From assembly GCA_014879655.1 (NCBI GenBank), contig JACSRS010000200.1, positions 1 to 64,000 of the forward strand: a DNA stretch of 64,000 bases. The letters run 5' to 3'. This DNA is from Burkholderiaceae bacterium. Lineage in GTDB: Bacteria > Pseudomonadota > Gammaproteobacteria > Burkholderiales > Burkholderiaceae_C. Below, one piece after another: positions 40,901-46,260 of this stretch. The notes beneath the pieces were generated by a model, which ran no database searches, was not told where the DNA came from, and saw only the letters and a list, made by a program, of their open reading frames with translations. The stretch's first letter is position 1; each line of letters begins with the position of its first letter. A program made the position numbers and the translations under genes.

Positions 40901-41734
40901 ATGCCCGCTGAAGCCGCTTCAACCACCGTGACGCCCACCCCGGGACCGCAGCGCATCGTCTGCCTGACCGAGGAGACGACCGAGTGGCTGTACCTGCTGG
41001 GCGAGCAAGCGCGCATCGTCGGCATTTCGGGCTACACGGTGCGCCCGAGGCGGGCGCGGGACGAAAAACCCCGGGTCAGCGCCTTCACCAGCGCAAAGAT
41101 CGACAAGATCCTCGCGCTGGCGCCCGACTGCGTGTTCGGCTTTTCCGACCTGCAGGCCGACATTGCGGCGGCGCTGATCCGCCACGGCGTGCAGGTCACG
41201 GTGTTCAACCAGCGCAGCGTGGAACAGATTTTCTCGGTGCTGTACCAGATCGCGGCGATGGTGGGCCAGGCAGAGCAGGGCGTGGCGCTGCTGGGCCGGT
41301 GGCGCGCCGACCTGGCCGCCATGCAAGCCGCAGCGGCCCGGCTGCCCCGGCGCCCGCGCGTCTATTTCGAGGAGTGGGACGAACCGCCGATCAGCGCGAT
41401 TCGCTGGGTGTCGGAACTGGTTCGCATCGCGGGCGGCGACGACTGCTTCCCCGAACTCGCCGCCGAGCCGATGGGCAAGAACCGCATCATTGCCGACAGC
41501 GGCGAGATCATCCGCCGCAACCCGGACATCGTCATCGGCTCCTGGTGCGGAAAGAAATTTCGTGCGGAGAAGGTCGCGGCGCGGCCCGGATGGGGCGCGG
41601 TCAATGCCGTGCGCGACGGCCAGCTGTTCGAGATCAAGTCTGCCGACATCCTGCAGCCCGGCCCGGCCGCGCTGACCGACGGCGTGGCGCAGCTGCACCG
41701 CATCGTGCAGGACTGGAGCGCGCGCCATGGCTGA
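40901..41734 (+). CDS. BtuF-like cobalamin-binding protein without signal peptide
   Basis: A 277-residue substrate-binding-protein-type fold. It has RIVCLTEETTEWLYLLGEQARIVGISGYT and IDKILALAPDCVFGFSDLQADIA, the common pattern of the B12/iron-complex family. The N-terminus (MPAEAASTTVTPTPGPQ) is not a signal peptide, so it is likely cytoplasmic. It may bind corrinoid inside the cell, but its role is not established. It overlaps the next gene by eight bases. Confidence 0.82.
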   Translation: MPAEAASTTVTPTPGPQRIVCLTEETTEWLYLLGEQARIVGISGYTVRPRRARDEKPRVSAFTSAKIDKILALAPDCVFGFSDLQADIAAALIRHGVQVTVFNQRSVEQIFSVLYQIAAMVGQAEQGVALLGRWRADLAAMQAAAARLPRRPRVYFEEWDEPPISAIRWVSELVRIAGGDDCFPELAAEPMGKNRIIADSGEIIRRNPDIVIGSWCGKKFRAEKVAARPGWGAVNAVRDGQLFEIKSADILQPGPAALTDGVAQLHRIVQDWSARHG

Positions 41735-42830
41735 AATCCGGCGGGACCCCCTGATCGCTTTCAGGGGGAAAAATGAACAAAAATGGCAGGTAGCCAGCGT
41801 CATATGGTCAGTTTCAGCTATTGTTTCAGGATTGATCGGCTGCGCTGAAGACACCCGGCGGCACCGGGCCGGGCGTCTGGCCTGCACCGGCGGCTGGCTG
41901 GCCGGGCTGGCGGCCGCGCTGCTGGCGCTGCCGGCAGCGGCGCTGCAGCTTCGCGACGACCGCGGCGTCACCGTCAATCTGCCGGCGCCGCCCGCGCGCA
42001 TCGTCAGTTTGCTGCCGTCGCTGGCCGAAACCGTCTGCGAGCTGGGCCAGTGCCAGCGCCTGGTCGGGGTGGACCGCTATGCCAACTGGCCGGCCAGGGT
42101 GCGCAAGCTGCCACGGGTGGGCGGCGGGCTGGACCCGGACATCGAAGCCGTGCTGGCGCTCAAGCCCGACGTGGTACTGCTGGCTACATCCAGCCGGGCA
42201 GCAGCGCGGCTGGAGTCGCTGGGCGTCAAGGTGATTGCGCTGGAGCCCAAGAGCCATGCCGATGTGCGCCGCGTGCTGGTGCAGGTGGCGCGCGTACTGG
42301 GTCTGTCCGATGCGGAAGGCGATCGGGTCTGGCGGCAGATCGATGCCGGCCTCGCCGAAGCGGCGGCGTCGGTGCCGCTGGCCGGCCGTGGCGCCCGTGT
42401 GTATTTCGAGGTCAGCAGCGGCCCTTACGCGGCGGGCGAGTCGTCGTTCATCGGCGAGACGCTGACGCGGCTGGGCGCGCACAACATCGTGCCGGCGTCG
42501 GCCGGCGCCTTCCCCAAACTGAACCCCGAATTTGTCGTGCAGGCCGACCCGGACCTGATCATGATCGGCGACGAGAACTTCACCACGCTGGCCGGTCGGC
42601 CCGGCTGGGCCGGCATGCGAGCGGTGAAGAGCGGACGGGTCTGCGTGTTCACGCCCGAGCAGGCCGACACCGTGGTGCGCGCCGGACCGCGCCTCGTCGC
42701 CGGTGCGCGCCTGGTGGCGGACTGTCTGGCCACGCTGGAGCGTCCGGGCCCGAAAAAGGGCGTGTCCAAAACCGAGCCACGGACAGCCGGCGCCCCGGTC
42801 GGCGCACCCGTGAGTGGGGTGGTGCAGTGA
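41727..42830 (+). CDS. btuF: BtuF-like periplasmic substrate-binding protein
   Basis: Up to 367 residues. The signal-peptide-like stretch is GRLACTGGWLAGLAAALLALPAAA (about residues 49-72). The mature domain carries PARIVSLLPSLAETVCELG and VGVDRYANWP. It delivers B12 to BtuCD. The first 35 codons read through a repeat copy, so the true start may be downstream, for instance TTG at 41832. The C-terminal 25 residues are Pro/Gly-rich and unlike the family. It overlaps btuC by one base. Confidence 0.88.
   Translation: MAEIRRDPLIAFRGKNEQKWQVASVIWSVSAIVSGLIGCAEDTRRHRAGRLACTGGWLAGLAAALLALPAAALQLRDDRGVTVNLPAPPARIVSLLPSLAETVCELGQCQRLVGVDRYANWPARVRKLPRVGGGLDPDIEAVLALKPDVVLLATSSRAAARLESLGVKVIALEPKSHADVRRVLVQVARVLGLSDAEGDRVWRQIDAGLAEAAASVPLAGRGARVYFEVSSGPYAAGESSFIGETLTRLGAHNIVPASAGAFPKLNPEFVVQADPDLIMIGDENFTTLAGRPGWAGMRAVKSGRVCVFTPEQADTVVRAGPRLVAGARLVADCLATLERPGPKKGVSKTEPRTAGAPVGAPVSGVVQ
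41765..41833 (+). repeat. dispersed repeat, copy 6 of 9
   Basis: Core CCAGCGTC at 41794-41801, then ATATGGTCAGTTTCAGCTATTG. It lies inside the open reading frame at the 5' end of the btuF-like gene, just after the preceding gene's stop. Confidence 0.74.
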
Positions 42831-44628: not shown

Positions 44629-46260
44629 GTGAGCAAAGCTGAAAACCCGCTTTCCCGCCCGCCCGCCGTCTGCGTGATGGTGCTGGGCACCACCAGCGGC
44701 GCCGGCAAGAGCTGGCTGGCCACCGCGCTGTGCCGCTACTACGCGCGCCAGGGTTTGAAGGTCGCGCCGTTCAAGGCCCAGAACATGAGCAACAACGCGC
44801 GGGTGGTGCAAGGCGAAGGCAGGAGCGACACGCAGTGCGCGACCGTGGGGGCGGAAGGTTTCGCCGCCGGGCCGCCCCAAGGCGAAACGCGGCCCCCCCG
44901 GGGGGCAGGGAGCGACACGCAGTGCGCGACCGTGGGGGCTGAAATTGGTTCAGCTCAGTATTTCCAGGCATTGGCGGCGCGCGCCGAGCCGGACGCGCGC
45001 ATGAACCCGCTGCTGCTCAAACCCGAGGCCGATACGCACAGTCAGGTGGTGCTGATGGGGCAGGTCAGCGCCGAACTGACCGCGCTGCCCTGGCGCGAAC
45101 GCGGCCCGCGTGTCTGGCCGCAGATTGCGGCGGCGCTCGATGCCCTGCGGGCGGAAAACGACGTGGTGGTGATCGAAGGCGCCGGCTCGCCGGCCGAAAT
45201 CAACCTGTCGGACTGCGACATCGTGAACCTGCGGGTCGCCCGCCACGCCGGTGCACGCTGCCTGCTGGTCACCGACATCGACCGGGGCGGCGCGTTTGCC
45301 CATCTGTTTGGCACCTGGGCCCTGTTGCCCGAGGCCGACTGTGCGCTGATCCACGGTTTTGTGCTGAACAAGTTCCGCGGCGACCCGGCCCTGCTGGCGC
45401 CCGGCCCGCAGATGCTGCACCAGCTGACCGGCGTGCCGACGGTGGCAACGCTGCCCATGTGGTGGCAGCACGGCCTGCCCGAGGAAGACGGCGTGCTGCA
45501 CACGGCGCCGGTCCCGAACGGTGCGCCCGCCCGCACGGTGGCCGTGATCGCCTGGCCACGCATCAGCAACCTCGACGAGTTCCAGCCGCTGTGCAATGTG
45601 CCGGGGCTGCATCTGAAGTGGGCACGCTCGCCGGCGGATGTGGCCGGTGCCGACTGGATCATCCTGCCCGGCAGCAAGAACACCGTGCAGGACCTGGCCT
45701 GGCTGCGCGCGCAGGGACTGGACCGCGCCGTCGCCGCGCACGCGGGCGCCGGTCACCCGGTGCTCGGCATTTGCGGCGGCCTGCAGATGCTGGGGGAGGC
45801 GCTGATCGACCCGCAAGCCATCGACGGCAACGGCCCCGGGCTGGGCCTGCTGCCACTGGTCACGCTTTTCGAAGCTGAGAAAGCGCTTTCACGCACCACG
45901 GCCCGGTTCGGCGAGCTGGCCGGCGTCTGGGGCAAGCTTTCCGGCGTGTCCGTCAGCGGTTACGAGATTCACCAGGGTCAGACAGCGCAGCACCCGGCAA
46001 TGGCGCGATCCGGCGACGTGGCACGTGAGGCCCTGCAGGCAGCCGGGGGCGAATGCATCGGCTGGCAGAACGCCGCCGGCAACGTGCTGGGCCTGTACCT
46101 GCACGGCCTGTTTGAAGACGCGACCGTGATGCAGGCACTGTTCGGCGCGCACGTGCCGACGCTGGACAGCGTGTTCGACGGGCTCGCCGATTTCATCGAG
46201 CAGCACTTCGAGCCCGGCGTGCTTGACGCTCTGGCGCGCCCCTTGCCGGCCGGCGACTGA
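44629..46260 (+). CDS. cobQ: cobyric acid synthase, with in-frame insertion
   Basis: A 543-residue enzyme that amidates adenosylcobyrinic acid a,c-diamide to adenosylcobyric acid. The N-terminal ATPase domain has LGTTSGAGKSWLA and FKAQNMSNN. The glutaminase domain has GICGGLQMLG (the Cys nucleophile) and YEIHQGQT. About 39-40 extra residues split VVQGEG from EIGSAQYF, where other CobQ proteins have a short GGEIG link. The frame is kept. Whether the enzyme is active is open. Confidence 0.9.
   Translation: MSKAENPLSRPPAVCVMVLGTTSGAGKSWLATALCRYYARQGLKVAPFKAQNMSNNARVVQGEGRSDTQCATVGAEGFAAGPPQGETRPPRGAGSDTQCATVGAEIGSAQYFQALAARAEPDARMNPLLLKPEADTHSQVVLMGQVSAELTALPWRERGPRVWPQIAAALDALRAENDVVVIEGAGSPAEINLSDCDIVNLRVARHAGARCLLVTDIDRGGAFAHLFGTWALLPEADCALIHGFVLNKFRGDPALLAPGPQMLHQLTGVPTVATLPMWWQHGLPEEDGVLHTAPVPNGAPARTVAVIAWPRISNLDEFQPLCNVPGLHLKWARSPADVAGADWIILPGSKNTVQDLAWLRAQGLDRAVAAHAGAGHPVLGICGGLQMLGEALIDPQAIDGNGPGLGLLPLVTLFEAEKALSRTTARFGELAGVWGKLSGVSVSGYEIHQGQTAQHPAMARSGDVAREALQAAGGECIGWQNAAGNVLGLYLHGLFEDATVMQALFGAHVPTLDSVFDGLADFIEQHFEPGVLDALARPLPAGD
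44822..44943 (+). repeat. GC-rich palindromic element inserted in cobQ, with direct repeats
   Basis: Two 35-base direct repeats (44822-44856 and 44909-44943, one mismatch) flank a structured centre. The centre has GTTTCGCC (44858-44865) pairing with GGCGAAAC (44881-44888), and the palindrome CCCCCCGGGGGG (44894-44905). The repeat period is 87 bases, a multiple of three. Confidence 0.88.

What the first reader, a model, noticed from the sequence alone, without database searches (positions are those of the whole stretch)
44822..44943. Palindromic element inserted in frame within cobQ
Seen: about 39-40 extra codons split the conserved N-terminal ATPase region between VVQGEG and EIGSAQ. They consist of two 35-base direct repeats 87 bases apart around a GC-rich palindromic core. 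The frame is preserved. Established: Rickettsia palindromic elements do this in proteins. Here a similar mechanism in a betaproteobacterium would be notable. Inference: the flanking direct repeats suggest a duplication or mobile small element, and the enzyme may tolerate an exposed loop.
Basis: partly seen in the sequence, partly recalled or inferred. Interest (0 to 1): 0.8.

Follow-up and report, generated by a model that had tools for sequence, protein, structure and literature searches.

The report
Repeat element inside a vitamin-B12 enzyme
A short hairpin-forming DNA repeat that is scattered through many Burkholderiales genomes has inserted itself, without breaking the reading frame, into one loop of the vitamin-B12 enzyme CobQ, and it appears to have done so separately at this same loop in seven related bacteria, which shows that such repeats keep adding coding sequence to working enzymes.

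Summary
Window cobQ (44629-46260) carries about 36-41 extra in-frame codons between NMSNNARVV and EIGSAQ. They are one full copy (44855-44939) plus the 3' part of a second copy (period 87 nt) of an 80-90 bp GC-rich repeat with 12 further strong copies in this genome. Nearly all relatives have only a short loop, but seven sampled genera carry this repeat in the same CobQ loop with an open frame, three in the opposite orientation; the tree requires seven changes. Window CobQ keeps 166 of 167 columns invariant among relatives, so the enzyme is probably functional. Across Burkholderiales, 49 of 136 copies lie in frame in coding-like ORFs (RecQ, PurL, RadA, ValS, UvrD, TrpE, LigA and others). Size, tandem habit, taxa and occurrence in genes match the published Beta-proteobacterial Repeat Element (BRE), noted in 2011 to lie sometimes in coding sequence; I could not compare sequences directly. 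New here: the recurrent CobQ hotspot, and a hairpin arm that differs between copies yet stays Watson-Crick complementary. It works like a Rickettsia palindromic element but is not shown to be one. The mobilising activity is unknown; target-site duplications are not general.

The parts
44629..46260 (+). cobQ, cobyric acid synthase, 543 aa, GTG start, frame intact across the insert
   Evidence: 166 of 167 columns invariant in relatives are kept
44822..44852 (+). 3' part of a truncated upstream unit of the repeat (first of the two 35-bp direct repeats, 44822-44856)
   Evidence: absent from the otherwise similar insert of G707 and G737
44855..44939 (+). complete repeat unit (model R2 match)
   Evidence: E=2.5e-12; R1 match 44851-44939, E=3.6e-8
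44858..44888 (+). hairpin 1: variable arm GTTTCGC (44858-44864), fixed core CGCCGGGCCGCCCCAAG (44865-44881), complementary arm GCGAAAC (44882-44888)
   Evidence: read; covariation
44892..44906 (+). hairpin 2: GCCCCC-CCG-GGGGGC, nearly invariant in the family
44907..44939 (+). variable segment (a hairpin in many copies) and conserved 3' end (consensus GAGCGTGGGGGC, here GCGACCGTGGGGGC)

Best explanation
The extra segment is a copy (1.4 tandem units) of a small non-autonomous dispersed repeat of Burkholderiales, most likely the Beta-proteobacterial Repeat Element (BRE). It inserted into a tolerant loop of CobQ after the P-loop segment. Shown: it is a member of a repeat family; relatives lack it; the frame is kept; the rest of CobQ stays conserved; the same loop holds the repeat in several genera in both orientations. 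Inferred: the roughly 79% GC of the repeat makes most frames stop-free, so it reads through as a Gly/Pro/Ala/Ser-rich linker. An insertion that keeps the frame in a loop is nearly neutral and survives; others are removed by selection. A later slippage or unequal exchange gave the partial second unit (29 codons, so frame-neutral). The repeat is probably moved in trans by an activity not identified here, through a folded single-stranded DNA stage. The near absence of G-U and the copy-specific but complementary arm of hairpin 1 fit arms that are newly copied as inverted repeats at the DNA level rather than an RNA stem evolving step by step. The host gains no evident function; the element behaves as selfish or neutral DNA.
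For: Copies in the own genome. In-frame copies in this genome in RecQ, PurL, AMP nucleosidase and RadA, and elsewhere in ValS, UvrD, biotin carboxylase, TrpE, Mpl, RecJ, LigA, formate dehydrogenase, acetyl-CoA synthetase, GcvP, PEP carboxylase and others. Same CobQ loop: G000, G707, G737 forward, G031 forward partial, G002, G084, G721 reverse; 7 carriers need 7 parsimony changes; close relatives lack it. CobQ conservation. Hairpin 1: 60 of 131 copies pair at 7 of 7 positions and 99 at 5 or more; mean stem 4.5 bp against 0.83 in shuffled pairings; covariation score 0.556 against 0.121 shuffled and at most 0.11 slid. Tandem units in other copies.
Against: No transposase is tied to the element: the only Y1-type transposase found in the genome has no copy within 1.5 kb. 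Flanking target duplications are not general. G000, G707 and G737 share a very similar 3' junction, so transfer of a cobQ segment between them is not excluded. Enzyme activity and loop exposure are untested; the structure model failed. Stop-free frames are explained by GC content alone.
Confidence: 0.88

Rival explanations
1. The segment is an ordinary lineage-specific loop expansion of CobQ by local duplication, unrelated to a mobile repeat.
For: The loop length varies without the repeat in other genera, and the 35-bp direct repeats look like a local duplication.
Against: The unit matches many dispersed copies in the genome and in other families, and it occurs in reverse orientation at the same site.
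Confidence: 0.02
2. CobQ is decaying and accumulates repeats because it is no longer needed; the insert marks a gene on the way to loss.
For: In G015 cobQ holds three repeat insertions, one of which shifts the frame. About a third of the sampled family genomes lack a CobQ match. G727 has a stop in the insert.
Against: In the window genome 166 of 167 invariant columns are kept, as in genomes without insert. The gene follows a B12-type TonB receptor, substrate-binding and ATPase genes in one direction.
Confidence: 0.07
3. The element was inserted once in an ancestor, or spread by homologous transfer of cobQ pieces, and was lost many times, rather than being inserted many times.
For: Forward inserts in G000, G707 and G737 share stem type and 3' junction.
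Against: Opposite orientations and different arms in G002, G084 and G721; the nearest relatives of most carriers lack it; 7 of 7 changes on the tree. G721 and G015, of one genus, hold different repeats in this loop.
Confidence: 0.15
4. The repeat is a functional RNA or protein-level element (for example an mRNA processing hairpin, or a linker that tunes CobQ), kept by selection in cobQ.
For: Strong conserved hairpins; a BRE copy overlaps the bprJ small RNA in Bordetella (PMC3110155).
Against: G-U pairs are rare in the variable stem (12 of 693 cells), unlike a stem kept as RNA. The repeat occurs in unrelated proteins and in both orientations.
Confidence: 0.06

Closest known systems
BRE, Beta-proteobacterial Repeat Element (Hot et al. 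2011, PMC3110155)
   Same: About 75-91 bp full length or 40-60 bp partial; GC-rich; tandem copies with little spacing; chromosomal; reported from Polaromonas, Delftia, Acidovorax, Rhodoferax, Bordetella, Azoarcus; some copies entirely inside coding sequences. The element here is found in Polaromonas, Delftia acidovorans, Acidovorax, Rhodoferax, Achromobacter and Azoarcus and is rare on plasmids.
   Different: The BRE sequence is in a figure and a supplement that are not held, so no direct alignment was made. The copy-specific complementary arm, the recurrent CobQ insertion and the translated tandem arrays are not described in the 2011 text that I read.
Rickettsia palindromic elements (RPE; Ogata et al. 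2000, reviewed in PMC2229807)
   Same: Small palindromic repeat, in frame in conserved enzymes, also intergenic; host proteins apparently still active.
   Different: RPE are 105-146 bp and Rickettsia-specific; here 75-90 bp with a multi-hairpin layout, in free-living Burkholderiales. No sequence relation was shown.
GTAG- and CGTC-tagged REPs (Di Nocera et al. 2013, PMC3733652)
   Same: Palindromic repeats, some inside ORFs, often DNA-repair genes, as in RecQ, RadA, UvrD, RecJ and LigA here.
   Different: REPs are 20-40 bp with a terminal tetranucleotide; here about 85 bp without a GTAG or CGTC tag at a conserved place, and no RAYT gene beside it. That paper itself lists the Bordetella repeats as REP-like without a conserved terminal motif.
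MITEs such as Correia/NEMIS and ERIC
   Same: Small, hairpin-forming, dispersed, sometimes fused to ORFs.
   Different: No clear terminal inverted repeats with target-site duplications.

Membership tests
BRE (Beta-proteobacterial Repeat Element) | sequence similarity to the bprJ repeat of Bordetella | not testable with these tools
BRE (Beta-proteobacterial Repeat Element) | length 75-91 bp, GC-rich, partial copies of 40-60 bp | tested here: met
   units of mostly 75-90 bp, 78.5% GC, partial copy in G031; published mean GC in Bordetella is 69%
BRE (Beta-proteobacterial Repeat Element) | tandem arrays of variable copy number | tested here: met
   L111, L113, L152, L216, G486 and others
BRE (Beta-proteobacterial Repeat Element) | taxonomic range (Comamonadaceae, Alcaligenaceae, Rhodocyclaceae), chromosomal | tested here: met
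   only 8 places in 72,556 plasmids and none in phages
Rickettsia palindromic element (RPE) | in-frame insertion in conserved protein genes | tested here: met
Rickettsia palindromic element (RPE) | RPE sequence family, Rickettsia host | tested here: not met
   Hosts found are Burkholderiales and Rhodocyclaceae; the sequence itself was not compared with RPE
REP (GTAG/CGTC) | terminal GTAG or CGTC tag on a 20-40 bp stem-loop | tested here: not met
   no tag at a conserved column; GTAG/CTAC near the ends in only 7 of 152 copies, CGTC/GACG in 35
REP (GTAG/CGTC) | association with a RAYT (Y1) transposase | tested here: not met
   one Y1_Tnp in the genome, no element within 1.5 kb
MITE | terminal inverted repeats and target-site duplication | tested here: inconclusive
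   flank similarity mean 4.37 against 4.06 shuffled, long matches in few copies

The most novel reading that the evidence does not exclude
A small mobile repeat whose first hairpin arm is rewritten as a fresh, perfectly complementary inverted copy when it inserts or is copied (a DNA-level fold-back writing step), and which repeatedly enters particular enzyme loops in frame, so that it acts as a recurrent source of new protein segments in free-living bacteria.
Probability: 0.3. Interest if true: 0.82.

Novelty: new variant of a known kind. Interest (0 to 1): 0.62.

Why it matters
In-frame palindromic repeats in proteins are best known from intracellular bacteria with reduced genomes (Rickettsia, Wolbachia). 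A widespread family doing the same in free-living Burkholderiales, with repeated hits of one enzyme loop and close relatives without the insert, gives natural before-and-after pairs to measure what such an insertion does to an enzyme. The copy-specific complementary arm is a clue to the unknown way in which these repeats move. It also warns annotators: Gly/Pro-rich stretches such as GPPQ..APSGG..SVGA or APTL..LPPEGA..LGRPG in Burkholderiales proteins are likely repeat-derived.

Tried and rejected
Target-site duplication by comparing the two flanks of 92 single copies: no general signal. RAYT mobilisation: the one Y1 transposase of the genome is not next to a copy. Stop-free frames as a selected trait: not above composition-matched shuffles (45 of 131 open in all six frames against 36.9 on average, maximum 48). 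Rfam: no family. Direct identification with Bordetella BRE through the lexA locus: no element beside lexA in the genomes reached. No PDB entry covers the CobQ N-terminal loop. A phage or plasmid origin: no phage match, 8 plasmid places.

Full report
Observation. The window holds cobQ at 44629-46260, 543 aa, with a very strong match to cobyric acid synthase. Two 35-bp direct repeats, 97% identical, lie at 44822-44856 and 44909-44943, 87 nt apart. The segment NMSNN...SAQ has 59 residues here and mostly 18-25 in relatives, so 36-41 codons are extra and the frame is kept. The finding is confirmed.

What the segment is. BLAST of the segment against the own genome gave 15 further matches at E<=1e-3, and a covariance model built from 12 copies gave 12 further copies at about E<=1e-7 besides the one in cobQ. 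Most of those copies were also in the model's seed, so the BLAST result is the independent evidence. The aligned copies share a fixed layout: a variable arm, the fixed core CGCCGGGCCGCCCCAAG, the complementary arm, GCCCCCTCGGGGGGCAGCG, a variable segment often able to pair, and GAGCGTGGGGGC. The 35-bp repeats of the finding are the 3' portions of one truncated and one complete unit. Tandem units of similar period occur in other copies (C24, C87), and the similar inserts of two other genera, G707 and G737, have a single unit. The partial duplication therefore looks specific to this lineage.

The family is large. A second model found matches in 46 of 399 genomes of the order and in 119 of 199 of a second family that may be Alcaligenaceae, the genomes there being unnamed. 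It is absent from phage records and rare on plasmids.

In-frame insertion is common. Of 136 copies with enough flank, 49 lie in coding-like open frames by a simple codon-position test; that test is heuristic and some of these are likely spurious. For many, curated protein models match on both sides of the element: RecQ, PurL, AMP nucleosidase and RadA in this genome, and valyl-tRNA synthetase, UvrD, biotin carboxylase, TrpE, Mpl, RecJ, LigA, formate dehydrogenase, acetyl-CoA synthetase and an RND permease elsewhere; Pfam domains flank it in GcvP, PEP carboxylase and acyl-CoA dehydrogenases. Tandem arrays are translated as peptide repeats in the permease, GcvP and acetyl-CoA synthetase. Of the 49, 29 use one forward frame (GPPQ..APSGG) and 12 the reverse strand (APTL..LPPEGA..LGRPG). 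Open frames themselves are explained by the 78.5% GC content and are not a special trait. Coding density in such genomes is near 90% by general knowledge, so 36% in ORFs means depletion, as expected if most coding insertions are removed.

CobQ is a hotspot. Among 123 genomes of the family with this CobQ region, the loop between NMSNNARVV and EIGSAQ carries this repeat in forward orientation in G000, G707 and G737, as a forward 3' half in G031, and in reverse orientation in G002, G084 and G721, all with open frames. G727 has two tandem copies with a stop and two N letters, so it was left out. G015 and G751 carry another palindromic repeat, of the CCCTCTCCC type, in the same loop. G002 and G084 have a second copy in a later segment of CobQ, and G015 one further on. 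On a CobQ tree of 36 sequences, seven carriers need seven changes, the maximum possible; the carriers were all included but only a sample of non-carriers, which favours separation. Sequences of the same genus without the insert exist for G031 and G737 (G732, G623), and the nearest sequences of G002 and G707 (G705, G709) also lack it. The forward inserts of G000, G707 and G737 share a very similar 3' junction, so either a preferred site or some exchange of cobQ pieces is possible.

Is the enzyme still under constraint? Leave-one-out counts of invariant columns give 1 change in 167 for the window CobQ, 0-2 in the other six carriers, and 0-8 in genomes without insert; only G015, with a frame shift, departs strongly. 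The gene follows genes for a B12-type TonB receptor, substrate-binding proteins and an ABC ATPase in the same direction, which fits corrinoid salvage. Activity was not measured.

How it may work. In 131 copies from different loci (a few loci overlap) the arm of hairpin 1 is nearly free in sequence (102 distinct 8-mers), yet 60 copies pair at all 7 positions and 99 at 5 or more; real partners give a mean stem of 4.5 bp, shuffled partners 0.83. On 36 chosen copies, which lean towards strong stems because I picked them, the covariation score is 0.556 against 0.121 for shuffles and at most 0.11 when slid. G-U cells are 12 of 693. An RNA stem under selection would be expected to show more G-U steps, so copying of an inverted arm at the DNA level is the simpler reading. 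This is inference. I could not show that the arm derives from the target: flank similarity in single copies is barely above shuffles. No mobilising enzyme was found: the only Y1 transposase of the genome stands alone.

Comparison with known kinds. The 2011 description of BRE fits in length, tandem habit, host range, chromosomal location and presence inside some coding sequences (PMC3110155). A direct sequence comparison was not possible, and a test through the Bordetella lexA locus did not reach the published genomes. I put membership at about 0.85. Rickettsia palindromic elements behave the same way but are a different, Rickettsia-specific set (PMC2229807). GTAG and CGTC REPs also occur in ORFs (PMC3733652), but the defining tag, size and RAYT neighbour are not met here.

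Verdict. Real, well supported, and a known kind of phenomenon in a host group where it was only noted in passing. The recurrent CobQ loop and the copy-specific hairpin arm are the parts I would follow.

Noticed in passing
L049 (G015 cobQ, about 1641-1860 and 2360-2490) and L376 (G751 cobQ): A second, unrelated palindromic repeat of the CCCTCTCCCGC..GCGGGAGAGGG type sits in the same CobQ loop; in G015 another such insert shifts the reading frame.
   Followed up: partly
L020, L021, L061, L096, L098-L100 (own genome C88, C139, C98, C61): A composite repeat shares the core GCCGGGCCGCCCCAAG but continues with GGGGCTGAG..GCGGCTC..GAGGAGCCGCC, another hairpin; it may be a hybrid or sister family.
   Followed up: no
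L110, L115, L117, L132, L169, L185, L199 (reverse strand): In several copies the variable arm, read on the other strand, looks like a ribosome-binding site (often GGAGG) followed by ATG, so the element abuts or supplies the start of the next gene.
   Followed up: no
L152, L127, L216, L233: Tandem arrays of the element are translated as peptide repeats inside an RND permease, acetyl-CoA synthetase, GcvP and an AMP-binding enzyme.
   Followed up: partly
L114:686-2227 (-): A copy lies in frame, on the opposite strand, inside a phage-type terminase large subunit, so prophage genes are also hit although no phage record matched.
   Followed up: no
window 40901-41734 and 41727-42830: Two adjacent open frames both match periplasmic substrate-binding protein models, next to the B12-type TonB receptor; a possible duplicated corrinoid-binding protein.
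   Followed up: no
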